A DNA stretch of 64,000 nucleotides from Dryococelus australis (lineage: Eukaryota > Arthropoda > Insecta > Phasmatodea > Phasmatidae), in NCBI GenBank assembly GCA_029891345.1, contig CM057005.1, positions 66,845,760-66,909,759 of the forward strand, read 5' to 3'. The notes beneath the pieces are model-generated. The model worked only from the letters and a program-made list of their open reading frames with translations. It had not been told where the DNA came from and made no database searches. Shown here piece after piece: positions 20,091-62,330 of this stretch. A program made the translations under genes and the position numbers. Within the stretch, counting starts at the first letter, position 1. Each line of letters starts with the position of its first letter.

Positions 20091-21519
20091 GTGAGTTTCA
20101 TTTGTTTTCTTTGTAGCCATTCAATGTAATGCCAATAAGCTTACCTCATGACTCCATAGTGGTCACTTTTACACGGGAAAGTATAAATGTAGGCATAGTA
20201 TAAATTTCTAAATTTTTTTAATTTTTAACTGTTAGCTATATTATAATTATGCTTCTATGTCATGTTATCACTGCCTTTCACAAGTTTAACCAATTTTATA
20301 TAGTTATTCTAATACTGGAAATAAATTTTTTTGTATTCAGCAGATGTAATTCGCCCCTTCCCATCTCTTTAAATGGCGTTTGTCATGTAAGTTGTAAAGT
20401 AATAACTTTTTGGCGGACATGGCTTTAGCACATATTTTAATCATTAGTTTTTTTTGTGTGTGTGTTCATTGTGGAATGTGTGATCTCTTATCTCTCCCAA
20501 CGGGAATGCTAGGGGGAGGGTAGTTTTAGCAAGCTTTTTTGGAAGCTGTGATTTTTGGTCTGTCTTGATGTCCACTTCACAGCATTCACACATGTTAGTT
20601 GAGGGCTACCTGATTTTTTTATATGAAGCTGTACCATTGTAAAATAGAGGCATTTTCATAATGAAGCCAAGTGGTCAACAGTTCCTTAGCAAGCATAGAT
20701 AAGTAAGGAGAGATCCAATTTTTTAGTGCTACGGTCGTCAAGACATCAGCACTGTCAAAGTATTCCCTCATATCTCTGATGGTGCTGCAGCTATTTGAGA
20801 TGCTTACGTATGTGAGGCTCTAACTTTCTAAGCTCACTGTTCAATGTGTCTAGTGTCATTTACGTTCTGGGTTATGTGTTTGGTTTACATTAGTGTTGGA
20901 GTGTCTTGAATATTATAATTTTGTTCTGACTCTAAAATGTCTTTATTACATCTTGTAAGACACTATAGTACAATATTATGTATTTGAAAAAAGTGCATCT
21001 CGTAAGGTGCTCAGCATATTTTTTTAAGAAGATCAACATCATATTACACACATATTGACATACATGTGTTACTCTACAAACCATATACTGTAGTTGTCAT
21101 GCTTACGTGGTTATGCATGGAACTTTTTAGAGGTTAGTTTAAAAAATACAAAAATACAGGATAAAATGTTGCAATTTCTTTGCCATCATTGTTAAACATT
21201 TACAAATTGAAGAGAACTGTTATTATTTAAACAGGTGAATTGGTTGCTTATTTGCATTTATTCCTGTTCTTTATTCATTACATATTTTCATGGAGTTAAT
21301 TAAAAGGATTTGTGCAGTGTTTTGTGGATTTGGATTTTTCACCAGGAACCATATTTTAAATGAGCTGGAATTGGACTTAGTGGTGTAACAGAGAGCATGA
21401 GAAGCTATGATTCCGGTGGCTACAATTTTAAACTTGTCATCAGGAGTGTGGTATTTTTAATCCAAACTATTTATAACAATCTTATCCACTTCCTCAACAA
21501 CCCTGACATGTGACCTCAA

Positions 21520-23110
21520 TTAAAATGGTGATGGCGTCACTGTCAGAAAAGGGTTCTGTAGTACCGGACAGAGGCACTGCCTAACTTACTGTGGTGAAGT
21601 TTGGGTTATTTGCTGCCTATTGGTCACCCTGCTGGAGTAAGTGGCCCTATGGCACTGCACAAAGTCAGGTGTGGTGATAACGGCTCTACACACTGATGGT
21701 GTGGACAAAGGCACTCTTTTATCTGCAGTGGGCATCACCTGGGTTAGGTTGTAGCTCTGCTGCTGGCTGGAACTGGTGCCCTGTCCTGGGCCGGCGGTGG
21801 TGCTGCTGCTGGCGGGGCTGGTTGGCTCTCGTGATGGGCTGCTGGTCCTCGCAGACCTGAAGTAAGGGCTGGCAATGCCCAGTGGTACTGGAAGACCCAG
21901 TCGTATGCACACTATGAGTGGGTGCAACTCTCCTATGATCTTCTGGGGTGGCTGGGAAAGGGGCCTAGGGGGAATTGAGCAACATGAGCTTGGTCTCAGA
22001 GGGAGGGGCTGCTGAGGGCAGACAGCAATGGGTTGCAGAGCAATTGACTATGGGGCAGTTGCTGCCATCTTAGCTCTCCACCTGGCACCACTTCCATGGG
22101 TGAAGGTCATATGGTAAGGTACTGCGGTCTACCACAATAAGGAGGAACAGGCAATGAGTTCCGTGGCTAAGAGTATAACCTGTCAGGGGCTAAGCCAACC
22201 AGAATCTGTCCTGTCACTCCAACCGGTGAAGTACAATGCGGTGGATAGAGTCGATTAGCTGATCTGGATGTCTAACCTCTTCATGGAGTGGGTTCGTAGT
22301 GGTCAGGGCTCTGCCATACGTGCGCGCCAGGTACCTTAGCTTACCTGGTCTACAGTATAGGTGGCCATTTAATGGGTTATGTTTTATGACATATGTGAAC
22401 CCGGTTAAAGGTAGCCCACAGTCCTATCAATATGCCATCTCCTTGTTCTCCTTAGTAGGTTTGACGTCTACGAGTAAGGAAGTCACAATGACCCTAGAAT
22501 AAATACTCTGGGTTATGTAAGATGACGTGTTTATTCCCCATAGGAATAGACATGGTGGCCCATACTATCTCCTAGCTATCAATGAACTATAACCGGCGGA
22601 AGTAGTCTGCGTTAAACCAGGTGAAGGGGGCCTAGGGCTAAACTAAACAAGAGCAGAAAAAGACTTGGTAGCTATGATAACAACTGACCCTAACTTAATA
22701 TATGCTGTTGTCCAGAAGGGACTCTGTGTTCACTACCAAAGTGATAGTGAGTGTAAGAGAGATCAAAGACTTCTTCAGGGGGTCGCTGGGCGAAGGTCTG
22801 GAAGACTTCTTGAAGGTAACGGTGGTCCTTCATGAGAAAGGTGGTAGGCAGAGAGCTCCAGCACACGAGGGGGTTGAGCAAACTGTAGAGTATCAACTGG
22901 CATTTTGGAGCTGCGCACTCTTGTATATAGACGGCCGGGTGCGGGTCCTTCGGCTTCCTTCAGGTGGTGCTTATCTTGGGCTAGAGCTCCTTCCTAGCTG
23001 CGCAGGCTGCAATCTCGTGGAGGAGGCTGGAAGTGCAGTTTCTGTGTATATGGGTTGCGTCACTCCTGCAAGTTTAGGGGCTGGGTGGTTGGCTTTGGTC
23101 CCATGCTGCG
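21520..23110 (-). repeat. Long LTR, copy B of the A-G family (approximate ends)
   Basis: Sense is the - strand: TATATA box at about 22922-22930, AATAAA at 22531-22536, then about 1.0 kb of U5. The AGGTGGCCATTTAATGGG family block (plus strand) is at about 22361-22378. One uninterrupted frame (21927-21586, 113 codons) holds both U5 protein blocks: HPLIVCIRLGLPVPLGIASPYF compressed around 21926-21861, a Ser/Gln/Pro-rich linker, then TTPDFVQCHRATYSSRV (about 21681-21631). This is the only copy where both blocks stay in one clean frame from the first block. Confidence 0.65.
21586..21927 (-). CDS. U5 open reading frame of LTR copy B
   Basis: 113 codons from an ATG whose second residues are HPLIVCIRLG, then PLGIASPYFRSARTSSPSRE, a linker rich in Ser, Thr, Gln and Pro, and TPDFVQCHRAT near the end. 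Upstream in the same frame, without a stop, is SIPPRPLSQPPQKIIGEL, so the frame may begin earlier. The same two blocks recur in the other copies. No known domain is recognised and there is no signal peptide or membrane segment. If the LTR layout is right, it would lie in the leader of the element's RNA, upstream of gag. It could instead be a non-coding conserved segment that happens to stay open. Confidence 0.4.
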   Translation of the reverse strand: MHPLIVCIRLGLPVPLGIASPYFRSARTSSPSREPTSPASSSTTAGPGQGTSSSQQQSYNLTQVMPTADKRVPLSTPSVCRAVITTPDFVQCHRATYSSRVTNRQQITQTSPQ

Positions 23111-23119
23111 GTGATTAAC

Positions 23120-23300
23120 GGACACATGACGTCTGACATAGTGGCATAGGCGGTCTTGGCTGTCATGTCATTGGGTGCCTCTTGCCTACGGGCGTGCTTG
23201 TTGGATCCAGAAGCAAGTCGTCCTGGGTTCAAACCCTGCTTGAGGTGACGTGATGTCACGTAAAAATGAGATGGAGTAGTGGTTAGTAATTATGTCAGTA
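23120..23300 (+). repeat. Possible tRNA-derived (SINE-like) segment
   Basis: TGGCATAGGCGG at 23142-23153 fits the RNA polymerase III A box and GGTTCAAACCC at 23226-23236 fits the B box exactly. The spacing (84 bp) is longer than in a normal tRNA and I cannot fold a tRNA. No other copy was seen in the window, so a SINE call is tentative. Confidence 0.35.
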
Positions 23301-24243
23301 CATGTTAATCGACCCCTCATCCCCTCCCCTGCCATATCTGTTATAAAGTTGACTCATCTGGTAGAATTCTGATGTGTGAGTGATGTAGCACTGTCACTCA
23401 AAACACTCAAAATCGTCTGGGTTGGTTTTTGTAGCACTCCTCTTCCGTGCTTGCTCTCTGCTCTGGCAGGTTGGTCGGGTGAGGGCCCTGCAAATGGGTT
23501 TTCCCCCTGGGGAGAATAGCTGTCACGTATAATGTACCGGTGTCTGGTAAATGCTTGCATCTCTTCTTTAGTTACAAGAAATGTGTTGCTCACACAAATC
23601 AGCCAAGGGCTGTGATTTATTTACGTAACTTGACAGAGTTTTAACCTGGAGTAAACCAATTTACAGACGTATACATGAAAAAGAACTCAAACACTGAGGT
23701 GTATATTCTAGTCCCAACCACGAGGGATGTGTCAACTTACTGCGTACCTGCTGTGGAACTAAAGGCGTTTTTAAACTGGCCCTGCTCTGTGGCTTCCTAA
23801 CTGGTCGCATGCAGGTAGTTTACATGTGACAAGTTTCTACCTAGGGCCGGCTCTAAGCTTTTACTTACCTAGGCCGGCTTCTACTTACATAATACACAAC
23901 ATGAGTTACCCTTTTTAAATTTAATTACATTACCAATTGTCATATGGGCCACCTACAAATAATAAAAAACATAGATCACTCAAAATATTACAATATTTAC
24001 AAAAAAATTACTGGTGGTGTACCAACTGTACACTTTGCATTATTGCAGTCCATTTTTCTTTCCTATGGCTGTCTTTCAGCGTGGGCTTTACGTGGTGTGG
24101 GAAGTCCTTGATTTACACGGGCAGCCTCACTTCCTGCATAAGGCTTCGTGTTGTGGAAACAGCCATGTGAATTTAGCCATGGGGCACCATGGTAACTCTT
24201 AGTACTGCCCTGGCTGACCTTGGGAGGCGGGGTGGCATCACCC

Positions 24244-41508: not shown

Positions 41509-43629
41509 CTTCTGACCAAGTGCGGATTTAGGGCGATGCGACAGGTGCCACTGCACAGGGCGTGTAAATGTGTGTTCAAATTATAAAACTATTATTTTAA
41601 TGAACATAACGTTATGTAGTTGTAGCCAACCGAATGACAAATGTGTAGCATATCTAATGTTGGCAAATTCAGAAACTAAGAAAGCTTGCAAAACAGACTA
41701 CTATATCATCACGGTCGGATAAAGTTTGAAAACTACTATTATAGTGCTAGTAGCTAACAGCTGGGCGAGAGGCATGGTCAGTTAGAGTTTCTGTTTGCCA
41801 TCCACATAGGGCGCTGAATCCTGAGCCATGAACACGCATTCCCTCCGTGTTTTTCTGATGTGCAGTCACCAGAGGTATAAGCAATGTTGTGGATGAAATG
41901 CTTCACGTCACCGCAGCCACAGGAACTGAACTCTTATAGTCTATTCGCGGTTTCTTCGCCCCCTTTTGAATCAAACTTTCGAAAAATCTCCCCATGTATG
42001 ATGTGTTTAGATATTTCCAACAAATGTCTTGTATCACAAGCGTTTTATACTTGCGTTCATAAAAGTAACTTTTTTTTTCTGTAAAATGAAATGATATTAA
42101 TTTTTAACTATAAATTATGATGCTTCATTTATGAATAATTTGAATAAAAAGCAGTGAGGAAATAAGTATCTTCGTACTGCTTGGTAATAAATAGTTCTTA
42201 TACAAAATACTGTTTCGTTGAGTGTGCACGAATGCAGTGCGTTGTCTGACGAGGGGGAGGAATATCCTGGGAGTATATCTTTAGCAGGGCTTCAGAAAAG
42301 AGTGAAGTAAACGTGAATGGATTATAGAGGCAAGTCTGTTTTATTTTGATTGGTTTTTTTTTTTTGCTTATTCGGGGTGGAGTCAAGAAACTAAAATTTA
42401 AACACTTAAGTGCCAGGCCATTTGAATATTTAGAATAGCTACATTATTTAAACACACCACCAACCTACTACACGCACATACGAATGTGCACACATGCATG
42501 CACACACATGCTCACAAATATTAAAATTTTGGTCAATCACACCTAAATATATTTTATGTTTTCAAGATATAAACTGTTTAAATAGAATCATAATATGTAA
42601 AAATTTTTGTTGTATCTTAGGGTTTTGCTGTCTGAATCTAAAAAGAAAAATCTTCTCCTTTTATTTTTATTTTAAAATTTATGTTTGTTATTTGGATACT
42701 TTTTGTGACTGATCTCTATACTTCAGCATAACTCAGCGAGTAAGGGAAAGTGTAATGTTCAGTAGGACTGTACTGTTGCTGTTTCAACTTATGCTCAATA
42801 AGAAGAAAGCACAACAATTAAGCTTAATGAACTATGAATAAAGCGAAGTTTTATTTTTCTGGACAGTGTAAGTTGGCCCTTTACTATTTGTTTGGTGGTC
42901 GTGTACCTGTGTTGGGTCGACAGTAACATAATAAATACTCGTGATGATATTGCTGACATCTTAGAGTGAGATGTGTGTTACAACTCCACTTCAACTTGTA
43001 CCACAGGTTTTGTTATGACTCCCTAAAGAAAAATTTGCACAGATTTCTATGTGCATAACAATTTTCTGTTTTCCACAATTTCACTTGGCTATGGGTTATT
43101 TTCTGTGTCAATAGGGGAAAGAATTGAAATATTTACAAAGGGGTTAAGGGCCAGTTTGTAGGTGCTAGAAATAGTAATTACTACATTGCTTCTCGGCAGA
43201 TTGCATTTTCAATTCAGAAGCTGTCACAATACAAGCATTATGCAATAAAAAATCAAATCTGCAATTATTTTAAGTTCTTATTAGTTTAGTAAATATGAAT
43301 ATAGCATAGCATTTGACCTCACTTTTATTTTGAATTATATGTTCATAATATGTTACTTTTCGTGATTCGGCAAAGTGATAATACTTTCACACAGTAAAAG
43401 TGACACTTTCAAAATGTTAACATTGTTTTTGATAAGTAAAGCTCATGGCAGTGTACATATTTACACGAGGCGGAATCATACCAATTAGCTGAAAATATAA
43501 CATATCTGTGCTTTAGAAATGTTTGCATCAATATGAATAGCCTTTATGTTGACACATGCCAAGCTATCTATGAATGTGCACTGTTACAGTGGTTTTTGGT
43601 AGCGTGAGACCAAACACGTTGGGGATCTG

Positions 43630-45430
43630 TTACTTATGTGTATAGCTTGCATTTCGTGCCACCCACTCTCGCTGGATGCGTTGGTTGGCGACTGGAAGCA
43701 AAGTTGTTCACTACTGCAATGGTAACTGGCTTATTTGAAGAGACTTTGACTGGCTTCAGTGTACCTGACTTACTGATAATTGCTTCGGTTGGAGGTCATG
43801 GGACAGATGCTGGCTGGCTGGAACCGATGAAGCTGGTGGAGGGTCCTGTGCTCTAATATTGTATCGCCGTACACAGTATCGCTGATTCCACGATATTGAC
43901 TCCTGGCTCCAGAACCAGGGGTTGGCTGCCCCGTACCTTACCTCGGTACCCTGTACAAGCCTTTGAACCACGGGGTGATACTCTCTAGTGATGTGAATGT
44001 GCACCGGGAAAGGGATGTATTCAATCACTGACGAGGAAGGTTTCTCCAGGAGTTGGGCGAGTGATGCTCTGTCCCGCTCGGCTTGCCTACTGGGGGTAGG
44101 CGGCAATAGTTTACACTCCTATTTGGCAGTGGTGTAGGTCGCCTTTTGCTCCTCTCTCTTGGAGCTTTGCCTTCTACCAAAAGGCATAGAGATTGGTTAG
44201 ACATTTAAGATGTTTGCTGTACGTCGTGAACACAAAGACAGTTCCCTATATAAATGTACGTCCAATAGCAGTTGACGGCACGAGTTCAGTGCTCTAAATC
44301 AGTTGCCCCGCCGTTCTGCACAGGACCTGGAATGTTGACCCATGGCCTTCCTACTACGTTTGGGTGTAGGCCGCAACAAAGGTAGGCAGTCCGTCTGGAG
44401 CAAATATCCTGGCAGGCACTGTAAGTGCTCTGGTAGGATGCAACTCGAAAAGCCTGCCTAGTCCCTGTTGGATGAGTTACTAGTGGTGGTAGCTTTACCG
44501 TTCTATCCCCAAAGGTCTAGAATGGGTGTCCGTCGATTGGTGTATGTCGTAGACGTACGGATTCCTGATGGGCCTCTGCAGTCCTACACTATGGTTCGTA
44601 CTAGTATGAAAAACCCAGTCTCGGTTGACAACGTACAGTAATACGTTTCTAGCGGTCAAAGGAAATATCTCTAGAACAGATTCTTGTCGGGAAAGGAACA
44701 CATTGTATTTATTGAATATAATAAGTACAAATGACCCGTGCTACCTCTTAACCAAGCAGAAGTGAGTATGGAAGTAACCTACACTAGACAGGTGTAGGTG
44801 ACCTGTTTCTAAGCTACCCAAGATATCTAGTGCATTGATGGCTATAAAAACAACTTAGTCGCAGCTACTCTATACAAGGGGCGACTAGACGAGACAAGTA
44901 GAAAACGGGGTGCCACTACTTTAAAAGCAGTGGTTGTAGTTGCCTCTACCAGCAAGTAGAGGTGGCTGCTGGTCGTTGTCAACAATGAAGCCTCTGGTAA
45001 CTGCTGGCTGCCGAAGACTATTGAGCAGTAGAAGACCCCAGCATACAAAGTGGAGGAGCGAACTACTGGAGAAGGAAATAATAACTTGTGAGCCCGGTCG
45101 TGCACTGACTTTTATAGTCCGAAGGACAGGTGCAGCGCCGGGCCATGGTGGCAGGTGTGACGTCTCTCTTGTGCGAGGCCGGGGTAGCTACCGTCTGCCC
45201 GGTCGCTTGGCTTTGTGCATAATCGACGGCGCTCTGTTTTCCCCCGAGGCAGTTAACAGCTTGTAGGCTCTCAGCGCGGGGTGGGGGTGCTCGCTGGCTT
45301 ACGCAACCGTATTTTCCGTGTTTTTGGAATAGCCGTCCAGGGTTGTGGCGATCCAAGATACTTGTGTAATAAGTTGGTGGGTTTGACTCTCTCTCGGGTG
45401 AAGTAGAAAAGTCAGATGAGTCTTAGTTGT
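43630..45430 (-). repeat. Long LTR, copy C of the A-G family, nested in hAT
   Basis: Sense is the - strand: TATAAAAG at about 45107-45116, the AGGTCACCTACACCTG motif at about 44790-44805, AATAAA at 44708-44713, then about 1.08 kb of U5. A frame (44106-43756) holds VIEYIPFPVHIHITREYHPV then VVQRLVQGTEVRYGAANPWF. The second block reads VVNNFASSRQPTHPARVGG (about 43714-43658) in another frame. GC-rich against its AT-rich host. No internal region adjoins, so it is probably a solo LTR. Exact ends were not determined. Confidence 0.65.
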
Positions 45431-45570
45431 ATATATTATACAGGAAAGCGGCATGCGTCAATATTTACAAAGTATACATTGATTTTGTGTAGTTCATTTA
45501 TGTTATTTTACTTAGTTCGTTAATGTTTTCAGACATTTAGCACCTGATATTGTCGACTGTCAAAATAGGG

Positions 45571-47280: not shown

Positions 47281-49199
47281 ATAGGTTAGTTAATGAAAGT
47301 TACATGACACACTCAACTGCCTCTAGGAGTTGTTGGCATTATATAGTCAAACTGTATGTGCATGTGTGTAGGAACACCTTGTGTGTGTTCATAAATTATC
47401 CATATTAGTTTATTGCATTGACAAGAAACAAATGCATGTTTTTAAAAATGTTAAAACTGGTTTTATTGTAAGTGGGAAGAATTTCCATTGAAACATGCTT
47501 TGGTTTGCCATTCTTTTGAATATGTTATTGGTTGACGGTACTTGAGGTGTCCAGAGGAAAATGTTATTTTTTGAACTTGAATGACATATCTTACACAAAA
47601 TTAAATTTCAAGTGCCTGCATGTTCAGAGAATGTCTTGATACAGGACATTGTTGCTTAAAATATCTTGAAATAATGGAAAAAATATAGTTCACTGCTTAA
47701 ATGCTTAAATGTATGCAGTCATTCTTTAAATTTAGCAAATCTTGTGTGTGTTACATAATGTCCAGTATTGTAGAGTACTGTATAGGTATGTTTCATAGCT
47801 CTTTTAGAGTAACATGTTAATGAGTCAAATCAAACTGGGTTTAACTCAGGTTGAATTGTAATTTTGAGTCTTCCAACAAACTTTATAAAGGAATTCAATT
47901 TCATATTGCAGTGTTCACTTGAGTTCAAGCTGTACTGATGTAACAAAAGTAGCAGTTTTCATAATTGCATACCAAGTTAATTTATGTTAAAATTCATTTG
48001 CAAGTATTATAATATAATTTTAGCTGCATGCAAAATAATGGATTTAACACAGTTACTGTGTTGTAATGAATAGTCAATAAAATTGTTTTTCTGTGAACTT
48101 CATTTTATTTGCACTATAAATTCAACATGCTGAGTTAATTGGTGCTATGAAAATATTAGAGGGTTAGCAAAAACATTTCACTAGTAGGTTTTTTTTATTA
48201 TAAATTTTTGCACTGTTCAACTGTGTGAAAATAATAATAATAATAATAATTTGAGTTGCCCAATAGCACTTTTTTTTTTCTAAGTTTGTAGGGAAAAATT
48301 TTATTTTGAATACAAAGTCGAATTTTTAAAATATTCTATTCGAATTTTCAAAGCTTTGTCCATCCCTAAAAAAATACAATTAAATAATTTACTTAATATT
48401 GATGAAATTTCACAGCATGTATCACAGACAAGTTTGTGCAGCCATAAAGCATGTAGAAGGAGAGGTTTTGTTTCATTAATTTGATTGCCCTGCTGCAAAA
48501 AAAAAACCTTCACTTTTGTAATTGCTGCTCATCCAGTGTTTCTAGAATAATTTTACTCTGTAGATAAAGTCAACATAAATTCTGCTTCAACGAAATCAAA
48601 ATAAACTAAACAGATTTGCTTTAATTTACAAGGATATATTTCTACTTCAGCCCTAGGTTGTAATTTCCAAGTTTATGTAACACTCTAAAGTGAGCTTTCA
48701 GAACTTTTTACTATGTTAAACTTTCAAGCTGCATAGATGTGTTTTCAATCCCTGTTAATAGGTCTGGTTTTAAATGTTACTTTAAAAAAATATGTGTGAC
48801 TTAAGTGTGAGATTGGAAACTTAGTGTGACTGGAGAGCTTTAAAACTATTAGTTCAGGCAAATATTTGCATTTTCTTGTGTTTAAAAGCACCAAAATATG
48901 TTGTGATAATTTTCCCACTACATTGCCACAGATCATCATTGTAACTATGTATATCTTGCCACTTTGTTTCTCACTATATTTACTAGTGCACAGTTTACAA
49001 GTAGACCTGCATCCCATTATACAACCTCCTGAAAAAAATAATTTGATGTATAATTTGTTTGTTGAACAAGTTAAAAGATTTTCTTATATAGTTTTGTAGT
49101 GCATACAGTACTTTGTGTGTTGAGGTGGGCAAGAAAATTGACCCATGACGTCTTTTTCAATAATGGAGATTAGACGACTTCCACTCCATCCTTAGTTCA
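47281..49199. other. AT-rich intergenic DNA, no gene recognised
   Basis: Contains an AAT trinucleotide array (48229-48250). The open frames here are short, AT-rich and unlike known proteins. Confidence 0.6.
48229..48250. repeat. (AAT)n microsatellite
   Basis: Seven AAT units. Confidence 0.9.
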
Positions 49200-51060
49200 G
49201 TTTAGCCAGGAGACTGAAGTTTGAATTTTAATTTGTCCCGACGTAAAGTGAGATTGTACTGTCTGCCTTGCAGATTGTTTTATTCACCGACCCACCATAA
49301 CTGCTTAGATGCAACAAATTCTTTTACTTCCCGCAAAATAGCATTAGTAGTAGGAATATCGTTTGCCTTTGCTTTTCTTCCCGAATTAGTATAAAAGGAG
49401 AGATGGCCCTGGTCTTCAGACCAGTCTCCATTTCTAGCGCCAGTCACTCACAGCCGACTAGATTGAGACCAGTCTTCATTTCCAGCACTTGTTGCTCGGA
49501 TCTGACCAGCCTGCACCCTTTAAGGCTTCACTTATAGTAGCCTTCATTCCCAGCGCTCACCTCTGAGGAATTGACCAGAATATTTTTTGTCTCCAGCCGT
49601 TGCTCGGACACACTACTCTACACTCTGTCTCATCGTTTAAGCTACGCTTACAATAGAGTTGGGTTACGTTAGTTAGGCTCTCTCCCAGCTACGTACCTCG
49701 CTATACCCACTCGCTCTACAGTATACGGACGTATCTGTAATGGACCTACCCCTGATGTCCTTCTCAGGACTCATCCTGTCATGTCCATGCTTAGTGTACC
49801 TAGCTACATGTCAGTTTCACCACGTTACTTCGTTGCACACAATCCACACGTACAACAATGCAAAAGGAGATTGCTTAGACATTCAGCATCACACCCAGCA
49901 TTCCCCTGTTTTATCTCCATTTGCCTCTGCCGATCATCATAGCAGTGTATTCTAGCTTCCCGGCCAGTACAGGAGTTAGAGTGCATTCACCACCTGTTAT
50001 CTTCCCTTGTGGAAATAAAATGTGGGTCGGCTTTCACCTTGAGTTCTTTCCTGTAGATATGGCACCTTTCTGTAGTTACTCTCACCTAACAATACCGCAG
50101 GTGATCACGGGAAATCTACTCAATCGAGCCAAGACACCTACTTTATACGCACTAGCCTAGGCCGCCCTCTCCGCCAACCCCCCGGGGATTGAAGGAAAGG
50201 AGGAGCTATACAGGTACACTGTCCTGAAAACAGCTTGTTGGTTCGGTGTTCGTCGGCCTTTCCACAGCAGTCTCCCCCAAGAGAGTCTGAGTCCCCTGAG
50301 TTGGGAAGCCTGGGACACGGCCACACACCCGTGCGACTTTGGACAGGTGAGGCCTGGCTTCCATCATGTACTGCAGTCTCTGCCAGGCGTTGGAATAAGA
50401 TGTCTGCCAGTCCCCGGCCCGCACGTGATGCTAAATGTAAGTTGCACAAGGAGCCTGCAGTCTTGGTACAGTAGTAGTGGGGTAAGTCCACTTCCCAATG
50501 CCCTATTCCAATCGGAGAAGGCTGAAGGAAAGAGTTCGGCAGAGCCTCTTGTCTTGTGGCCAATCGTACGAGTATCAGCCCTCCCTGGTGTCTTACATAT
50601 CTAGCTTAGAACCCCAAACTCAAGCATCTTCAAGACCCAGTGGAAATCGACATACCCAGAGATCTGTTTGACTCTTCAGTGGCCAACGGCTCGACAGAGT
50701 ACCCTTCATGAGTAGCAGAACATTAGAGCCAACCCGAACAACCACCTACACCAGTCATCGCTTACTTGGTTCCTACCATACTGCGTCCTGCTCCTCCACC
50801 GAAGCCTCTATCCACACCAGCCTACTCCACTGTACCAGTACCTGCACTGGTCAGAACAGACGCCACTCCAGCAACTCGTCGCCCAGGTATTGCCAAGAAA
50901 CGAGTGGCACCCAAGCGTAGAATTGTTCTACCCACACCTGATTTCGTGTCCTGTCACAAAGCCACCCGGCCAGTTCTTTATAACTGGAAGGCCATTAGAA
51001 CTGAAACCCCCTCACATTATAAAAGTGTCTGGCTTAACTGCTAGCTAAAAGGGTGGAGAC
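49200..51060 (+). repeat. Long LTR, copy E of the A-G family (approximate ends)
   Basis: TATAAAAG at 49390-49397, followed by three degenerate GACCAGTCT-CATTTC-AGC repeats (49400-49580). AATAAA lies at 50014-50019, then about 1.05 kb of U5. The U5 encodes VEIDIPRDLF (about 50641-50670), then in the frame 50766-51044 PVPALVRTDATPATRRPG and LPTPDFVSCHKATRPVLYNW. No gag follows, so it is probably a solo LTR. Ends are estimated from loss of GC richness and of family similarity. Confidence 0.6.
50766..51044 (+). CDS. U5 open reading frame of LTR copy E
   Basis: 92 codons, open also upstream through TPVIAYLVPTILRPAPPPKP. Pro/Ala/Thr-rich first half, basic stretch AKKRVAPKRRIV, then TPDFVSCHKATRPVLYNW. 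The last block matches copies A, B and G at DNA and protein level. No known domain. Alternative: conserved LTR sequence without translation. Confidence 0.4.
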   Translation: MVPTILRPAPPPKPLSTPAYSTVPVPALVRTDATPATRRPGIAKKRVAPKRRIVLPTPDFVSCHKATRPVLYNWKAIRTETPSHYKSVWLNC

Positions 51061-51387
51061 AATCTACTAAGTCAGACAAGTGAGTATATATTCCTGGTAC
51101 ATGCATCAAAAATTTTGATTGTTTTCAGAAATAATGTGGCTAGATTGTGAAATCATGGAAATTATTAATTTAATTACTATGGCATGAGTTGTTTCACTTG
51201 TCCTTACATGGATATTGTGTGTAAATTTTAATAACGAAATGTATAATTTATGTTTAGATTTTGTAAAGCAGTAGTTCTATTAAGTGTGCTTGTAAAAGCT
51301 TTGTTTGTATGAAAACTATGGAGAAATACAAATGGGGATTTTAATGTAAACGTTTTTGTGTTTTATTGGTTTGTTCACCTAATCTCC

Positions 51388-51486
<99 letters not shown>

Positions 51487-52149
51487 CTGTTTTATAACAA
51501 ACATTAAATGACAGGAAGGAGGGGTCTCTGTCATTCAAGCAATAAATATCATTGAAAAAGGAATGTCTGTAATCTTGCAAAGAAAAAAATGGTAATTATA
51601 TGTTTGCTCACACTTTAGAAACCTAACATGCATTGTTGCAGTTTGTTGCAGCATTCTCTTGCATATACCTCAAAACTGCCTTTGGTGTTGTAAATTTTTT
51701 TTTATTTTTCCCATGAAATCTGTAACACATTTAAAACAAAAGGAATTAAATTATTATCAAAGTTTGTCAGTATTTAGAAAATGTATATATATATTGAAGC
51801 TGGTTTTCTTTCCATGATAAAGATTTTCAGACAGTAGAAACTTTGCAATGTATTTTTTATTATCCTTTACTTATGAAAGTGGCTCATTCTGAGGAAACAT
51901 AAGTTTTACACTTTCTATGCTCTTTCAGTTGTGAAGGATGTACCAAAAATAATTTTAATATTATGTCATGTCACAACTGGGTAGGTAATAATATTATTAT
52001 GGTGTCAAACGTAATGTCTAGTTTTGCAGCAAGGAACAAAGAAAAAATTGAAATTGAAAGGCAAAAATCTTACCTAGAATCAATTTGTTTTCATTACTTC
52101 TTGAATAATGTAAATCAAATCAAAAATTCTTCACTTTGACGTGTGATGC
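51061..52149. other. AT-rich spacer with long TA microsatellite
   Basis: No gene; dominated by the TA array at 51391-51483. Confidence 0.7.
51391..51483. repeat. (TA)n microsatellite, 93 bp
   Basis: Uninterrupted TA array. Confidence 0.98.
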
Positions 52150-53770
52150 TCTTCGCAGCTATGATGCGTACCTGACTTAGCCTCATCTGAGCGCAGTTTC
52201 ATTTTGCTAGGAAAGTAGTTTTAAACAGTACTAGAAGAAGGTAGTCACATGCCTACAGGGTACTTTATCGCATTGAGGAGCCTGCCGCATCAGTGATTCT
52301 CCATGCAACAGAGATGCTAGTAGATGACACCAGCAGAGATTGAGGGGTGGATCTTATCTCCCTCTTCACCCCTTGCCTCCTCTCCAGCAGTCAACCAGTA
52401 CATAGGGCCCTGCGAGACCTGCAGAAGGCAGTCTGTTTCTCCTCCACTGCTCTGTACAGGGATGGAGAACGCCACCAGCGTTCACACTCTCTAGTACGCC
52501 TTGCTGATTCCAATGCTCTCTTAAGGGCCCGGATGAAACCTACTTTTGGCGTCAAACCCACCAGAAGCATCTTCTGCGCCTGTGGCAACATCCTTCAGAC
52601 CTGGACTCCACACAAACAGCTCCTTCTGCGCTACCCTCTGGTAATGGTCGTCAACTGTCCCTTCAGGACTACTACTCCTGCCTTACTGGATGGTAACAGT
52701 AATCCTTACTACTACCCTTCTGGTAGCAGTTACAAACAGTCGCTTCAGGACAGCACAGACATATAGTTAAGGAAAGTTGTAGTTAACTGCTTAGCAGTGT
52801 TATCTCCTTCCCAGTAGGTTAGAACTAGGTCGCCCCTGGCTATATGCAGGTTTAACTTCCATATCAATTCCAAGTTAATTTTAGAAGTTGGTACAGGCCA
52901 CTGTGTATATTCTTACTGAATATATATGTGGTCTACACTTACTTCTGGGTACTGATTTTTGAGTGTCACTGTTAACCTCCCATTGAAACCAGCCCACTAA
53001 AGTGAAGCCGGAAGACCTAACTAACCAAAGCAATATAACACGCCCATTAGACTGCCACTCATGCTGTGCCCCAGAGTATAGTACGGTAGAGACTCAACCA
53101 TTAACACCACCTCCATTTTGTGGCTAGCCATCCAGGCCGACCTATACTCCGCCACTGCTCTCTATGGGGCCGGAAAGGAGTAAGTGTTGGTTCTGGGGGA
53201 CTGAACCCTGTCAGTACACCCAAGTGCCGTGATGTACAGTCTGTGCCAACCCACAACTCTCCACCGTACTCTACGGGGTCGGACGAAAGGAGTATGGGGT
53301 ATAAATATTGCCTGTGTGGCTGCGGCCCTTGGCAGAACACATTGGAGAGTTAAAGTCACCAGCTTCACTTTTGCGAGACTGTAATTTGTACCTTCTCCTA
53401 TGCTGTACACCCAGAAGGGTGGTGTATGCCTTCAGAAATAACCTGAATTGTGGTCTAATTCCTCTTGCACTTGGCAATACATCCCTGTGGGACAGTTCAC
53501 ACCGCTCACGCACTGGAGAGGCCTCACCTCCCAGTGCCACCCCAGCCATTCTTTCTCCCTCTCATCAAGACCGCTGGTTCACCATACCCCCTGGTCGAGG
53601 CTATCTACAGAGAGGAACCACCTCTGGGCATAGCTAACCCTTGGTTCGGGGTCAGCAGCACACCATGTCCCGGTGGGACTCGCAGCAGTCACCTGCCTTC
53701 ATAGCATCTGGGGTAGCAACATCCAAGAAGCAGCAATCAGCTAGGTAAACCCATTGTTAAGGGCCAGCCC
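52150..53770 (+). repeat. Long LTR, copy F of the A-G family (approximate ends)
   Basis: Family landmarks on the + strand: AACTTCCATAT block (about 52855), degenerate poly(A) region TGAATATATATGTGG (about 52917-52931), CACGCCCATTAGACTGCCACT (about 53040-53060). The frame 53465-53704 ends PYPLVEAIYREEPPLGIANPWF, the first U5 block. A further block reads RRAVIVVRLVRLSPRL downstream of 53770, where copy D's gag begins on the other strand. A 139-codon open frame (52347-52766) precedes these and matches nothing I know. No TATA box is clear. Confidence 0.5.
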
Positions 53771-53779
53771 ATTCGCCGG

Positions 53780-55091
53780 GCTGTGATAGTAGTTCGGCTG
53801 GTGCGATTATCTCCTCGGCTGATGGCACTGGAGTCAGAGGCCCATGGGTGACCTCTGTCTCGATGACCGGACTTCTGGGCATATCCTATTGTCCAAGAAG
53901 TTGTGTCCAGGTATCTGTCTAGGCATCTAGCAACAACATGACCTTGGTGGCCATCTGGGGCAGTGGTATGACCACTTCGCCTACCACCTCAGTGGATGGT
54001 GCCCGAGTCAGAGGCCCATAGGGAACCTCCGTCTCGATGGCGGAGCTGTTTTCTAGTTCGTCAATCAGACTGGATTGGTGTCTTTTCTGGCGAAGTGACT
54101 TCGAGAAGACTTCACCAGGAGATTTCAATTGTGCTTGGTGTCATTCCTCCTCAGGCGGCGACATTCTGAATGTATTCTGTGGGAGCATTCAGCTGCTCGT
54201 CATTTAAGAAATTCCACTGGGGCTGGAATGTAAAAAACTAGCCCCCTGCCTGGGGCCAGCCTGAGCCTCAAGCTCTCTGGGAGGAGGTAGCCGGTCTTCT
54301 AGAAGGGCTTCCTGTGCTGAGTCGTCTATATCGGCTCTGTCTCCCTCGCCCACTCTATTAATTCCATTACCATCTGTGGTTTCGGGCTTTCTAAGAAATT
54401 CCTGAGCTTCGCTAGGAGTAATCTGGTAATGTTGTGTACGTTAACTCTCTCCGAACTTCATTTCAGGGAAAAGATATTAGTATATTTGTAACTTCTGGCA
54501 TATTAATATCCCAGCCTCCTCGTTGATGGTCTAGGTACAGCTATGAAAATCGGTGGTGAGGTTGGCTAGCATTTCTTCCCCAGTGGACTGGGCGGGGAGG
54601 CGGCACTTAGTTGTCCCTACTCGGTGATAAATTCACCATATTTTTGCCATCACTCGAGGGCTTTGCCTTTGAGTTTAGCTTGCGCCCTGCTGACCCATTG
54701 TTTCTGCTGAATTTCATTGCCACAAAATTTTTTTTCGCAATCGGTGGTGAATGCGAACAGGTCCTCGTGGGGACATGAGGATTGTGGGGGAATGGTTCTG
54801 AACACAGGATGCAGCGGACTACGTTAATACCATGTCCTAGGCATGTCACCCAGCTGCAAAAAGCTGTCTGTCTAGTGCGGCATTCCTCGCATAAAAATTC
54901 AAGACTGCCTGTGTACTACATTTCATGCCGGCCAAACCCAGGCAGGTGTAATGAAATTTATGCTGACAATGCACACATTCTGTACTGTAAGTCACAGTGC
55001 CGGGGCAGTTGGGTTTATGGCAATGCTCAATAATGACTTCGGCCATGGTTAGTTTGGCTTGCTCTGGCTCGTTCACTTCTGTGTCCGACAT
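53780..55091 (-). pseudogene. gag: Gag remnant of LTR element D with two zinc-binding modules
   Basis: Follows the D primer site on the - strand. The first frame (55091-54846) has EHCHKPNC, then TECVHCQHKFHYTCLGLAGM: C-x2-C-x4-H-x2-C as in PHD/RING-like treble-clef fingers. A frameshift leads to INVVRCILCSEPF with a degenerate H..C part (54849-54607). Element G carries the same pair. Further downstream is a 58-residue tandem repeat (174 bp; starts near 54050 and 53876 on the sense strand): AIETEVPYGPLTRAPSTE and VIETEVTHGPLTPVPSAE. Several stops; pol is absent before copy F, so the element is truncated. Confidence 0.6.
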
Positions 55092-55254: not shown

Positions 55255-56330
55255 CTTCTTGACTCGCGACATCCTTTGACAAAGGGGCACATTACAGCTC
55301 AAGTGTTTTGGTTAGTGTGAGGGCAAACAAACCTGAGTGAGTTAAACTCAGATCACTTAGTGCGAAATAGGAGCCCTACCAGTGTAAAGGACTGGACGTG
55401 TGGCTACCCGGCAATCTTGAGAGTGGTCCCAACCTACGCCTGGTTGAGACCACTCTCACTTTTATACATGGGTGTTTGGTGATCTGTGGTGGTGGCTGAC
55501 CCTGCTGTGGCACTGGTGAAGGTGAGCTGGCGCTGGTACCAGGACCTGATTGGCTGCTGGGTCATCTGGGGCTGGCACTGCTGGTCGTCATGGCTGGTTC
55601 GGTGGGCTGGTGTCCCCTGATCCAGGGGTTGGTGATGCCGAACCTCGCCCCTGATAAAGGCCTGGATAATGGGGTGGATATGTCTTGGTGGGGGATTCAA
55701 ACAAAGCAAGAAGAGGAGCTGGAGGGACTGACCTCCCCAGGCAATGGGTGGCTTGAGCTCATTCCCAGGGACTTAGACTGTCAAGTACAGTTGAGTTGGA
55801 GTTGAGCCCTTGTTTGTACTTAAAGGCGGTAGCAGCCTTTTGTCTCTCTTTTAAATACTACTCCGATGGGAGTAAGGCATGAGGAGAAAGATACACTACT
55901 AGCCCCCCGAAGGTGAAGCAGGCGACGTTCGTCCCTATCTAGGTGTTTTGGGTGTGGTATCCTAAGCGTCAAGCCCTCAGACTCAGGCTAATACTACCTC
56001 CAGCACCAGAAGTGCGATAGATGGAGTATAACCTGGACTGATTGCCTAGCACCAAGAGGGTTAATTTCCTAGTGGTTGTGGCTCTACCTTTCTATACACT
56101 GGTGTGAATAGAATGGGTGGCCGTCTAATATGTATGTTCATGAAGTACGAATATTCCTGAAGGGGAATTCGCAGTCCTGCAGTAGGTTCGGAAACTGGTT
56201 TAGAAAATATTCCACGGTCTCCTGTTGTTCCTTGGCAGACCTGAAGTCTACTGGGAAGGGTTCTAGCGACACATGGAATAATATTCTACAGCAGGGTAAA
56301 AACGTTTATTTCTGTATGTATCGGGTATGG
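55255..56330 (-). repeat. 5' LTR of element D, U5 side
   Basis: AATAAA at 56305-56310 (sense is the - strand), then about 1.05 kb to the primer site. U5 block 1 reads HPIIQAFIRGEV then, in the next frame, FGITNPWIRG (about 55690-55610). Block 2 is degraded but its DNA still ends CCAGTCCTTTACACTGG (about 55376-55392), matching CCAGTTCTTTATAACTGG in copy E. The rest of the LTR (U3 and R) is displaced to 58115-58400 by nested insertions. Confidence 0.65.
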
Positions 56331-58114
56331 TATCGAGCCGATACTTTAGTATCGGTTGTAGACAATGAAATCAGGTTATTACTTTCTTTAGCTACAAAAA
56401 TTGCCGTATTTCGGTTTGTATACTCCGTACATTAAAACAAAAAGAAAAATAAGAACAAATGCCGTATTTACTCGTGTATAGCATACCCTTTTTTCCCCAA
56501 AATAAAGGAAAAAATTTCTGGGGTGCACGCCATACACAGAAGAAAAAGAGGAAGGGGGGAGTGGTAGCCATAAATTGTCCGGGGATCGCAAACCAGAGAG
56601 CTGTGACATGTTTAAGGCCCCCCCCCAAAGTCCTCTTTGTTTCCATGGCAGAGGTTAGCGAGTCATGTTAGTTGAGGATGGTGGGATAAGGGATGAGGAG
56701 ACCCTTTTTTTTTTTATATATAATGGTAGTGTGACATTTCAGCACAGCAAAAAATAGGGCAAAAATAGAGCCGGCCGCTGATAAAAGAAGAAAGGAGAAA
56801 AAATAAAAACGAAGCTGGAAATGTTGAGTAGTAGGAGCCGGAGGTTTCAGGATTTTTTTTTTATTTTGGCTTTTGGCACCCAAGTTATTTAATTAAAAGT
56901 ATTTTCCAAACATCACAATCACCACACATTAATGTAAAAATAATAATTTGTTCCATACTTGCTATCAGGGTGCCACGAATTTTTGGTGCAATTTTATTTT
57001 AAAGAAATTTTTCGCTGGAACTTGTTGCAAAAATAATGGTGCTTGCTATACACGAGTGCACGCTATACATGAGTGCGCGTTATATACGAGTAAATATGGT
57101 ATGCATCGCTCAAAATAGTTGCATCTAACATCACTTGTATTTCAAAGCAAATGGTTTCACCTGAAAAGGTTATGCAAACATTTTAACAAGGAATTATTAT
57201 TTGTAAAGATATTTTCTTTTGTGTTTAAAGGTGGTTTTATCTGGTAAGGTTGGTGTTTCATTGTATCTGGCATAAAATTAACATGACTTTAAAACTTAAT
57301 ATTTATTTGACTCAAAGGGCAGCATCTTCGTGAATTAAATATTATCCCCCAAAAGCATATACTCTACTGCTTGTCAGCAAAAAATTGTTTGAACATCGAG
57401 CAACTTGTATTATAAGTGTCCATTTTCAGTAACTTCTTGCAGGGAAATCGGAGGATTTATACTAATTTATTTCAATAGACATGCATCTTTGAATAAACTG
57501 ATAGTATGTAATATGCCTATTCGACACATTTTGCCTTCTAATAATGGGTAGGTAAGCACCAAGCCAAGTGCAATGTAACTCATGACAGAGAAAATCGGAG
57601 GGCATGGTTTTGAATGATTAATTATTAAAGGCAGTGAAGGAATCAATGATCGCCTCATTTGTTTCTCAAAATTACAAGTTTTCTTTGCAGTAAAATATCA
57701 TTAATTTCTTTAAAAGGCAGACATTTGCCACATTTGCTAGGTGTCACCAACAGGTAGCGGCGTAGAGAGGTCACCCCCCCCCCCCCCAAAAAAAAAAAAC
57801 CGCCCCCTTCTCACGTAAATCAACAAACATGACACTGCCCGATCGAGAATTTCTCCATGTGCTCTTAGCTGACAGTGCACATAGGATATTTTAAAATTTG
57901 ACTTGTATTTGGTGTCATATTATTTGCATTTTCAGAGGGTTTGGAAGTTTCAGGTAAGCTTGCATTTAATGTCGGATTACAATAAATTATATACAGTATT
58001 TTAAGACATTATTTTCTTTATTTAAATGAGTATATGAGAAATGTTTTTATGTATTATTAACAGTAATACTTTTTATAAAAATTCAGTGCGAAGGGCATTG
58101 GTATCGAAGCAACT
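56331..58114. other. Insertions splitting LTR D
   Basis: AT-rich DNA that separates the two parts of LTR D. It includes the MITE at 56462-57099; 57110-58114 shows no gene and a C-run/A-run at 57773-57800. Confidence 0.5.
56462..57099. mobile_element. 638-bp non-autonomous TIR element
   Basis: The left end CCGTATTTACTCGTGTATAGC and right end (complement) CCATATTTACTCGTATATAACG form the inverted repeat. The right subterminal zone holds three degenerate copies of GCTATACACGAGTGCA. No protein coding. Superfamily not assigned; no clean target duplication. Confidence 0.75.
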
Positions 58115-58400
58115 CTAAAACAAAAACACGGTGATTTGTACTACCTCCTATCAAAAAAGAGTTTAACGGAAGCTGGCTATACTTTACAGGTGAAGGTGAC
58201 CTGTTTCTAAGCTGACAAGGTGAGGTGATTATAAAACAACTAGACTTTAACAAAGCTACATGTTATCCTGTAGGGGACCTGGATTTTTCTGAAGGGAACT
58301 AAAGTGTAAAATATTTGACGACTTAAATGTAGGGAGCTTCTGAAGGACGTATGCAAGGTGCAGAAACATCTACGAAGTCTTGGGGATGTATGTGATTGCA
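58115..58400 (-). repeat. Displaced part of LTR D
   Basis: On the plus strand ACACGGTG then TACTACCTCCTA, AGGTGAAGGTGACCTGTTTC and TAAGCTGAC match the same-order blocks in copies A (about 17770-17850) and C (about 44740-44820), which lie just 5' of the poly(A) region in sense. This segment therefore continues copy D beyond the nested insertions. Confidence 0.6.
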
Positions 58401-58899: not shown

Positions 58900-59249
58900 C
58901 TGAGGACACAGATACTCTTAAATGCCATTTAAAATCAATCTCTTGTATATAAGCAATGTCAGCGTGAAGTACATATAAGACAGGAATTGTGTTGTTTGTA
59001 GTGAACGTATTCATCTCGTGTTAAGCCAATCGGTCACTACTCAAAATGAAGTTGATTTTGGGTAAATTTTTTATTTAAGTAGAACCCTGGTTTGACATTG
59101 TTTAAGAGGACAGTAAAATAAAGTGTTATATGCAGGAAGCAGTATTACACTTGCAGGAACACATCAAGTGAGACAAAATTGTAATGTAATAATGTGACAC
59201 ATGACATCGTACCACAGCACACTGCTAGATGCCTCTACAAGTACGAATC
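58900..59249. other. Spacer between zinc-finger exon and LTR G
   Basis: Putative intron side of the zinc-finger gene; nothing else recognised. Confidence 0.5.
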
Positions 59250-61068
59250 GTCGCAACCAGTGCCGCCCCTATCCAGCTGACTGAAGGGGAATGATCTGCC
59301 AGAGCATAAATAGCGGGACGTTCACCCGCTCATAACCAACCTCTCTGGTTATAAGCCAGCGTCCCTCCCACAAGAGAAGGCGAAATGAAACTGCAATTAA
59401 AGTTCTTGTCCACTCTCTACTAAATTTCTTCATCTCTACTAACACGAGCTTGTTCCACACATACACTCTGTCTCCTGTAGCATTTCTGATTAATGCATGA
59501 ATAATTTTGAATTCTATTATGTCGATTGGGTTTTTACGGTGTCTATGCCAGTTTTTCCCAGTCTATTCTAGTGATAGCTTAGCTGTAAGTACACTTAGGG
59601 AGGTAGTCATGGCCCCAATTGCAGGCCATGGCTGCTCAATCCCTCTTTGCCGTGATGCATGTATCCTTGCATGATTTCCTCTCCTTGTAGGCATAAGGTG
59701 TCTAGTCCTGCCCCACCCACCAGGCTTTCACTTAAGACTTAGTCATAGGGTAGTTAGAAAAAAATCCGCTCGTAGCCAGTTTTCATTCCTTCACCTCATT
59801 TGTGCTGAACGAACTTATCAGTCTGCGTCTCTCCACCACAGCCCTAGCCAGAGATATGACTGCTAGCTTCGCTCCTTAAACCTACCCTCCTTCACCACAT
59901 GCATGCCGAAGGAACTAGCTCTCCTTGACTCCACCATGCTCGTCGCCGGGGTCATCCTCTCTAGCCTATCTTCACCGCATTCGTGCAGAAGATACTACCT
60001 GCCATGTCGTCTTCATACTGAGACACTGCATCTCCTTCTGGGCAACACATGCATAGGGAGTAGTACCAGTTTGAGTTATTTTCATAGCATTCATCTACCC
60101 TACAATTTTGAGGCCAGCTTGCCTGCTCAGTTGCATACTATCTCCAGGGAATTTCGGTGCCATAGCTAGTGTTCCCTGGGTGTTGGGAGACTGTCCCCTC
60201 TTGAGACACTCACCCACTTGCAGAGACTGTCAATGGTGAAGTCTGACTCTCAGTGCTCACTGTGTTTAGGTGCCGAGTGCTGAGATAGGGTGTTCTCTTG
60301 GGTCAGCAGACGCTACGTGTGGTTGTACACCAGGTAGGACCACGCATCACATGCAGTCGCTTCACGGACATGAGGTGTATGACTTAGTCCAAATGTCCTA
60401 TTCCTATCAGAGTGGTATCCAAGAGAAAGTCAAACAGGTGCTAACTGCCGCTTGGTGCTTATAAGAGTTTACCCCCCGCCTCATCGCTATGCTCACGCAG
60501 CTTTCCCCCAAGGATCAAGCCCAAGATTCACACCGACTCCAGCTTCGAGTCGTACCAGAGATACCTCAGGACCTCTTCAAGTACCCCATCCGTCTAAGTG
60601 GAGAAACACACCTATGGTTCGCAGTCTCATTAAACTGATCAGACAAGTCCTTGGGACTCCCCAACTCATACTACAGGGGAGTAGAACCAGTGGAGCCTAC
60701 ACAGCCGCATGTCACAACCTTTGAGCCATTGATCGCAAACCAATCCAGTTCACACTCACATCAGCCAAGGTTGTCCCAAGTCAAATCGCTGCTAGGGGTT
60801 ACGCATCGCCCAGGTGCGCCACTGAGAGCTAACCCTTTAAAGCAGAAGATCACTCTCACAGAATCCGAGTTTGTGCCCTGCTGCAAAGCTACCAGGCCAT
60901 TCCTCTAAACTGGACGTGCACCAGTGCCATGCAAGGACTAAGAGAGAAACCCGTAATTCCCATCAGAAGTGTGCGCCTTGCCTAGCACCCGACAAAACAA
61001 GCATCCTTAAAGTAATGACGACCTTGTCAGCCCTGAGGCATTACGCAGCAAGAATAGGTAGTAAGAAT
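59250..61068 (+). repeat. 5' LTR of element G (long LTR, approximate start)
   Basis: A CATAAATAG TATA-like box lies at about 59303-59311. From 59780 to 60110 there are four degenerate repeats of TTCACC-CAT-GTGC-GAA type. No good AATAAA was found. The U5 encodes VVPEIPQDLFKYPIRLSGET (about 60558-60617), SLIKLIRQVLGTPQLILQGS (about 60625-60684) and SEFVPCCKATRPFL (about 60864-60905) in different frames. The end is fixed by the primer site at 61074. Confidence 0.6.
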
Positions 61069-61073
61069 TTTTC

Positions 61074-61091
61074 TGGCGCCCAACATTGGGC
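61074..61091 (+). promoter_or_regulatory. Primer-binding site of element G (tRNA-Lys-like)
   Basis: TGGCGCCCAACATTGGGC matches the usual tRNA-Lys primer site of Ty3/gypsy elements at most positions. Confidence 0.85.
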
Positions 61092-61159: not shown

Positions 61160-62330
61160 CTTTGGAGAGTCCCCTGAACACCCCATGGCACTCAAATCCG
61201 CAACCAGAAGAGAACTATTTACACGAGCGAGCACAAGCTCAACTGCACTGTTGCGAGAGCAACCAAACACAGCCACTGTTCTAAACCTAATTGCTCCAGC
61301 ATGGGTACATACAGAATCCAGTGCGCCCATTGCAACCATGGTTCTACTACTCCTGCCTAGGGTTGGCAGATGAACCGTGCTACACCGATGGCCTTGAATA
61401 CTGTACAGTGCATACTGTGTGGGGAGACCTACCACCATGGATGCATAGGTTGGCGAGACGAGCGCATAACCCGATCAGGAATGGTATATCAATGCGAAGT
61501 CTGTCGACAGGCTGCCCAATACAGACCACACAACCGAGGAACTGTCTCTCACTTCAGCATTGCTCGTAGCATATGAGGGCCCCAGTTACCAGATTTCGCG
61601 AGATGACCTCACGAGGACCTCCTAGTGTTCTCCGCCGAATGTGAATGGGAAATTCGCACATACGATGTCCTCGAAAAGCAATGGGTCTCACAAGCACAAG
61701 TCAAGTTGAAGGGTAGTGCCCTCAAATGGTGGCAAAAATAAGGAGAATTCGTTTCTGATTGGAGCAACTCAATAGCCGACTCGCGCAACAGTTCACTGGA
61801 AAAGAGGTACTGGTGTGCCTCACTACAGAATTCTACAGCCGCGCCCAGACACCAGACGAGGAAAGTTGTGTGCTGCAGGTACTCGTCTGTTGTTACACAA
61901 ACTCAGAAACATTTTACTCATTCCCAAGCCACTCACTGAGAACGAACTGGTAGTCCATGTGTGGGAAGTGGCATGCAGCTTTATAGTGCAAGCTGTCCTG
62001 GACCGCCCGAAGCCAAGCAAGTAAACAGAGCCCAAGAAACCCATAGAGCGAAAACTAAATATGCAGCCACCTGCCCACTCTGCCTACTCCTCGCCTACTG
62101 TCCCGCATACCATTGGTACTGCCCTGCAAACCATTTCAACAAGGACAGCCCACAGAGGCCAGCACCAAGACAAACATCTGAGGAAGAACGGTGCGCAACA
62201 CGTATACCACATACCACCCAACCTAACCCTAGCAATGAAGACATCCCATAGAAGGGAAACACTGCTGTCGGCGGGCAAAAAGGGGCGGCCCCGTCGGACA
62301 AGAAGGGCAAACAGTTCAGCTATTAGATGA
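61160..62330 (+). pseudogene. gag: Gag remnant of element G with two zinc-binding modules
   Basis: After a degraded N-terminus, one frame gives IQCAHCNHG and the next continues FYYSCLGLADE (61318-61375): C-x2-C-x4-(Y/H)-x2-C, collinear with CVHCQHKFHYTCLGLAGM of element D. A second module follows: VQCILCGETYHHGCIGW, then MVYQCEVCRQAAQ (61400-61510), a complete Cys/His set. The capsid region begins FSAECEWEIRTYDVLEKQ and KLKGSALKWWQK (about 61630-61738), typical of Ty3/gypsy Gag. The later part is scrambled. At least three frameshifts or stops. Confidence 0.65.

What the first reader, a model, noticed from the sequence alone, without database searches (positions are those of the whole stretch)
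59250..61068. A long-LTR retrotransposon family whose U5 encodes a conserved short protein
Seven loci (A 16640-18780, B 21520-23110, C 43630-45430, D 55255-58400, E 49200-51060, F 52150-53770, G 59250-61068) share, in sense order, a block like HPLI..IR.G.PLGIANPYF and, after a Pro/Ser/Gln/Thr-rich linker, DFVxCHKATRPVLxxW. B and E keep a clean open frame; A, C, D, F and G are frameshifted but still recognisable. Because the poly(A) signals lie upstream of this region, the reading frame would sit in the 5' leader of the RNA, ahead of gag, and not at the end of pol. I know of no described Ty3/gypsy protein with these blocks. Coding versus non-coding conservation is not settled.
Basis: partly seen in the sequence, partly recalled or inferred. 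Interest (0 to 1): 0.75.

Follow-up and report, generated by a model that had tools for sequence, protein, structure and literature searches.

The report
Hidden protein gene inside retrotransposon LTRs
The long repeats that flank a group of retrotransposons in this large animal genome contain a reading frame for a small protein that evolved under protein-coding constraint while the elements were active; no protein of this kind at this position turned up in the papers searched.

Summary
The loci carry diverged relatives of one reading frame in the 3' part of long repeats with LTR ends (six of seven clear, C weak at E 0.056; reversed window, no hit). In families E and G the frame runs from a retained ATG (14 of 16; 11 of 15) to a retained stop (13 of 16; 10 of 13), about 170-183 codons, closing about 107-121 nt before the LTR end in most open copies listed. 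Within a family no clear signal is seen, as expected if copies decay neutrally after insertion. A retained AATAAA lies ~1.1 kb before the LTR end in all three families, upstream of the frame, which fits U5; no RNA evidence was available. The protein is basic, with a predicted N-terminal three-helix bundle; no sequence or fold relative was found. The elements are Ty3/gypsy-type, Osvaldo-like in architecture. An accessory protein is my best reading.

The parts
59195..61050 (+). LTR of copy G (followed by a primer site, so a 5' LTR; lacks ~330 bp present in relatives, at 60107/60108)
   Evidence: ends read; homology limits; gap seen
60393..60908 (+). U5 reading frame of copy G, broken; ATG at 60393, recognisable pieces 60393-60461, 60465-60635, 60639-60905
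61074..61091 (+). primer-binding site, 16 of 18 bases complementary to the host tRNA-Lys(CTT) 3' end, 23 nt after the LTR end
61403..61520 (+). PHD-like Cys/His motif in the gag region of copy G (read by eye; a relative scores as PHD)
   Evidence: PF00628 E 1.2e-5 in L074
62486..62917 (+). open stretch that by eye looks like the protease/RT-start region of copy G; no Pfam match
49139..51108 (+). LTR E with no element interior beside it, flanked by AAAAT on both sides
49811..49816 (+). initiator-like TCAGTT in LTR E (motif kept in 13 of 16 copies), candidate transcription start
50014..50019 (+). AATAAA of LTR E (14 of 16 copies), candidate poly(A) signal
50498..51001 (+). U5 reading frame of copy E (ATG at 50498; in three pieces in this copy; usual family stop near 51001)
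21504..23310 (-). LTR of copy B (3' end at 21504; 5' end not fixed, 23310 is only the limit used)
21586..22110 (-). U5 reading frame of copy B: ATG at 22110 in a short piece closed by a stop, then the open stretch 22047-21589
   Evidence: genome search of A not answered
43549..45461 (-). copy C, ~1.9 kb genome-wide repeat; frame similarity weak (E 0.056)
52136..53793 (+). copy F, ~1.7 kb genome-wide repeat; frame piece 53459-53701

Best explanation
The 3' third of the LTR of these Ty3/gypsy-type elements is a protein-coding gene. SHOWN: the frame has retained ends and evolved with third-position excess between LTR families, in this frame only. INFERRED: transcription starts in the LTR upstream of the frame, and polyadenylation in the 3' LTR happens upstream of it too, so the frame lies in U5, in the 5' leader of the genomic RNA ahead of the primer site and gag. 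Because everything between the RNA start and the primer site is copied into both LTRs during reverse transcription (general knowledge), a gene in this place makes the LTR long and puts a copy of itself in every solo LTR. INFERRED, weaker: it works as an accessory protein made from the leader (binding RNA, or helping transcription, export or evasion of silencing), not as a structural or catalytic protein, since gag and pol domains are encoded elsewhere.
For: Cross-family codon test with DNA-only alignments: E-G over the whole frame 0.507/0.560/0.381 (504 columns, 0 of 5000 permutations), first 60 codons 0.570/0.591/0.361 (p=0.0006); E-B 0.428/0.441/0.344 (p=0.0058); G-B in the same direction in both alignment modes, not tested for significance. 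Start and stop are kept better than the average commonest codon (E 14/16 and 13/16 against 0.735; G 11/15 and 10/13 against 0.683). No codon column with 40% or more stops over 180 (E) and 223 (G) codons. The starts of natural copies look alike between families (MPYS in L068/L070, MSYS in window G, MTFT in window B; by eye). AATAAA at median 1119, 1167 and 1105 nt from the LTR end in E, G and B. Primer site against the host's own tRNA-Lys. Confident three-helix prediction (pLDDT 92-93 for residues 11-50). The sequence beyond the LTR end of an E copy (L059) matches the interior of a G copy (L008) by translation, 47% over 110 aa, so the families share an element interior.
Against: No RNA, ribosome or protein data. 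Within families no clear codon periodicity. Only 1 of 16 copies in E and 1 of 16 in G has the frame uninterrupted. Parts of the frame are weak on their own: E-G last third p 0.05-0.06; E-B first 60 codons p=0.048, middle 60 p=0.29. One of six upstream control frames falls below 0.05 in each of two alignment modes (0.049; 0.018). AATAAA retention in G (10 of 15) is not unusual for that family: 13.6% of columns are kept as well. Retained ATGs lie between the candidate start and the frame's ATG in E (49858 in 14 of 16; 50018, 50147, 50423 in 8-10 of 16), which argues against simple scanning. B copies were chosen by protein similarity. No known fold or family gives a function.
Confidence: 0.68

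Rival explanations
1. The frame is coding but lies in U3: transcription starts downstream of it or the poly(A) site is downstream, so the protein is made from the 3' end of the RNA as with the MMTV superantigen.
For: Promoter and poly(A) positions rest on short motifs only; no transcripts.
Against: The only AATAAA kept by at least 45% of copies lies ~1.1 kb before the LTR end and upstream of the frame in all three families; in E an initiator-like site kept in 13 of 16 copies lies about 200 nt before it. The frame closes about 80-121 nt before the LTR end in most open copies listed, leaving little room for R and U5.
Confidence: 0.15
2. The frame is the first exon of a spliced message (an amino-terminal extension of Gag or of another product) and not a free-standing protein.
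For: Donor-like GTRAGT sites near the LTR end: E at 51080 in 7 of 15, B at 21589 in 17 of 29.
Against: The frame closes with a retained stop before the LTR end (13 of 16 in E, 10 of 13 in G), and the E donor lies after that stop.
Confidence: 0.1
3. Non-coding conservation: an RNA structure or packaging signal, with the open frame by chance.
For: U5 and leader regions of retroelements carry RNA signals (general knowledge). Within families no codon pattern is seen.
Against: Between families, changes avoid first and second codon positions in this frame; the shifted frames do not show it and the upstream blocks hardly do. Window copies that blastn hardly connects are connected by translation.
Confidence: 0.05

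Closest known systems
Osvaldo lineage of Ty3/gypsy (Culex members in PMC3286476; section 13 and passages read)
   Same: LTRs of about 1-2 kb, primer site for tRNA-Lys; target-site duplications mostly of 4 bases in its Table 1
   Different: No LTR-encoded protein is mentioned in the section and passages read; reverse transcriptase phylogeny not tested here
Retrosat2/RIRE3/RIRE8 ORF0 of rice (PMC3485330; passages read)
   Same: Extra ORF without firm function upstream of gag-pol in an element with very long LTRs
   Different: In the passages read ORF0 is described as upstream of ORF1 and not as part of the LTR; no sequence comparison made; plant elements
MMTV superantigen (recalled)
   Same: A protein encoded inside an LTR
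   Different: Lies in U3 and is expressed from the 3' LTR; here the frame is next to the primer site, downstream of the AATAAA
Walleye dermal sarcoma virus OrfC and the Ty1 Gag start in the LTR (both recalled)
   Same: Coding sequence in the 5' leader, or starting in the LTR
   Different: OrfC lies after the primer site; Ty1 Gag reads through the primer site, whereas this frame stops before it

Membership tests
Ty3/gypsy LTR retrotransposon | LTR with inverted terminal bases | tested here: met
   TGACGC-type starts and GCGTCA-type ends in E, G and B copies
Ty3/gypsy LTR retrotransposon | short target-site duplication | tested here: inconclusive
   AAAAT on both sides of window E; of 31 loci with both ends guessed by motif, 28 had flanks on both sides and 2 of these gave a perfect 4-base duplication (L060, L003); many of the guessed 5' ends are unreliable
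Ty3/gypsy LTR retrotransposon | tRNA primer site just inside the 5' LTR | tested here: met
   16 of 18 bases against host tRNA-Lys(CTT) in G; a PBS-like word with up to 2 mismatches after the LTR end in 7 of 91 loci, window copies included (no control run, I estimate about one by chance)
Ty3/gypsy LTR retrotransposon | gag and pol domains | tested here: met
   in L074, which holds parts of two oppositely oriented elements: Arc C-lobe 6e-8 on one strand, RNase H 4e-21 and integrase core 2e-4 (below cut-off) on the other
Ty3/gypsy LTR retrotransposon | two matching LTRs on one copy | not tested
   G runs off the window; no full copy was put together
Osvaldo lineage | LTR of about 1-2 kb | tested here: met
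   E 1970 nt, G 1856 nt with a ~330-bp loss
Osvaldo lineage | primer is tRNA-Lys | tested here: met
Osvaldo lineage | reverse transcriptase branches with Osvaldo | not testable with these tools
   no reference element sequences held
LTR superantigen type (MMTV Sag) | frame in U3 | tested here: inconclusive
   AATAAA lies upstream of the frame in three families, which speaks against it, but no transcripts
Known protein family | match to Pfam, PDB sequences, or solved or viral folds | tested here: inconclusive
   18 members scanned against Pfam, only one weak hit (E 0.31); no PDB sequence match; no Foldseek match under E 0.001

The most novel reading that the evidence does not exclude
A lineage of LTR retrotransposons keeps a gene in U5, so reverse transcription writes it into both LTRs and every solo LTR is a promoter plus a complete accessory gene; the long LTRs of Osvaldo-like elements in general would then be long because U5 is coding, and the many solo LTRs could supply the protein in trans, or have been taken over by the host.
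Probability: 0.4. Interest if true: 0.75.

Novelty: new variant of a known kind. Interest (0 to 1): 0.62.

Why it matters
LTRs are mostly treated as regulatory DNA. A conserved gene in U5 would explain why some Ty3/gypsy lineages have LTRs of 1-2 kb, would mean that solo LTRs of these elements carry a gene and not only a promoter, and would add an accessory protein to a group known mainly for gag, pol and env. It can be tested in other insects with Osvaldo-like elements and in transcriptomes.

Full report
What was checked. The window lies in a 3.4-Gb genome in 646 contigs. LTR E runs 49139-51108, flanked by AAAAT on both sides; LTR G runs 59195-61050 and is followed after 23 nt by a primer site that matches 16 of 18 bases of the complement of the host's own tRNA-Lys(CTT). 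Homology among copies of E, G and B stops near these ends. Of 91 loci (88 fetched and the three window copies B, E, G), 7 have a primer-site-like word after the LTR end (no control run, about one expected by my estimate); the others are solo LTRs, 3' LTRs or too decayed to tell.

The reading frame. A profile from 18 natural frames, chosen for being open, finds six of the seven loci clearly (C only at E 0.056); two of them (B, E) are in the profile; the reversed window gives no hit at E<=1. Two protein queries gave 151 and 150 matches from 150 scored candidates each, out of first-look lists of 8106 and 13688 (capped). C and F are genome-wide repeats of 1.9 and 1.7 kb; their LTR ends were not checked, and the search for A did not complete. 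blastn at word 7 connects the window copies hardly at all, while translations connect them.

Coding or not. I used family E (window copy plus 15 of the 39 other scored copies of DNA search), family G (window copy plus 15 of the 39 other scored copies) and family B (window copy plus 29 of about 150 copies found by protein similarity). L001, L009 and L039 (the window itself) and L074 were left out. Alignments were made on DNA alone. Between E and G the mean pairwise identity over the frame is 0.507, 0.560 and 0.381 at codon positions 1, 2 and 3 (504 columns; none of 5000 permutations as extreme); with another alignment mode 0.505, 0.567 and 0.391 (p=0.0002). The first 60 codons give 0.570/0.591/0.361 (p=0.0006), the middle 60 p=0.016, the last third p=0.058. 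The two shifted frames give p 0.82 and 0.999. Two upstream blocks in three frames each give p 0.049-0.86 in one mode and 0.018-0.89 in the other, one value below 0.05 in each mode among six. After the stop p=0.39. Between E and B the frame gives 0.428/0.441/0.344 (p=0.006), carried by its last third (p=0.007) and first 60 codons (p=0.048), not by the middle (p=0.29) (all). Between G and B the direction is the same (0.475/0.522/0.372 and 0.432/0.470/0.378 in two modes, no test). Within families no clear pattern is seen. The simplest account is selection on a protein while the elements were active and neutral decay of each copy since.

Extent. The start codon is ATG in 14 of 16 E and 11 of 15 G copies; the stop is TGA in 13 of 16 E and TAA in 10 of 13 G copies; the mean retention of the commonest codon is 0.735 and 0.683. 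B has an ATG at the matching place (window 22110; about that column in 15 of 29 copies). The frame is uninterrupted in only 1 of 16 E and 1 of 16 G copies. From the first ATG, three natural products (L068, L070, L088) are 176, 170 and 182 residues with pI 9.67, 9.95 and 9.65.

Position in the LTR. Each family has one AATAAA kept by most copies (E 14/16, G 10/15, B 18/27), 1119, 1167 and 1105 nt (medians) before the LTR end, upstream of the frame. In E and B fewer than 3% of columns are as well kept; in G 13.6% are, so the G case alone is weak. In E an initiator-like TCAKTY is kept in 13 of 16 copies about 200 nt before the AATAAA (no chance control). I infer that R lies around 49.8-50.0 kb in E and the frame in U5. 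Retained upstream ATGs mean that simple scanning would not reach the frame first.

What the protein is. AlphaFold2 gives a confident helical bundle at residues 7-54 and low confidence over much of the rest (the domain alone, without alignment, mean pLDDT 75). No significant Pfam, PDB-sequence, PDB-fold or viral-fold match.

The element. L074 contains, on one strand, a PHD finger (1.2e-5, above cut-off) followed by gag with an Arc C-lobe (6e-8), and on the other strand RNase H and integrase pieces of a second element; L008 has a partial PHD match below cut-off (0.0087). The G copy has the same Cys/His pattern after its primer site (read by eye). The sequence after the LTR of an E copy (L059) matches the interior of L008 by translation. 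Long LTRs and a tRNA-Lys primer match the Osvaldo lineage as described for Culex (PMC3286476, section 13 and passages read), but no reverse transcriptase tree could be made.

Judgement. The shared frame is real; coding constraint is shown between families; U5 placement is likely; function is open. My boldest reading is that the gene's position ahead of the primer site is itself the reason for the long LTR.

Noticed in passing
L074:775-1080 (+), L008:1087-1500 (-), window about 61403-61520 (+): PHD finger (PF00628; above cut-off in L074, below it in L008, by eye in the window) ahead of the Arc-like capsid region of the element, an unusual domain for a Ty3/gypsy gag as far as I know; one paper search for PHD finger with gypsy, LTR retrotransposon and Gag listed 5 papers; in the one opened for it the single PHD mention is a host gene.
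   Followed up: partly
window 56311-58106: Another repeat of ~1.8 kb (13157 first-look candidates, scored copies mostly 80-85% identical) nested inside locus D.
   Followed up: no
window 9599-10114 (-): Open frame of near-tandem, coiled-coil-looking repeats (by eye) on the same strand as another Ty3/gypsy-type reverse transcriptase frame at 7026-7862 (-).
   Followed up: no
window 61051-61073: 23-nt spacer between LTR end and primer site in G, longer than the few bases usual for retroelements (general knowledge).
   Followed up: no
window 60107/60108: Copy G lacks about 330 bp that its relatives have between the two conserved parts of the LTR; the AATAAA kept in the family maps into this missing part.
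   Followed up: partly
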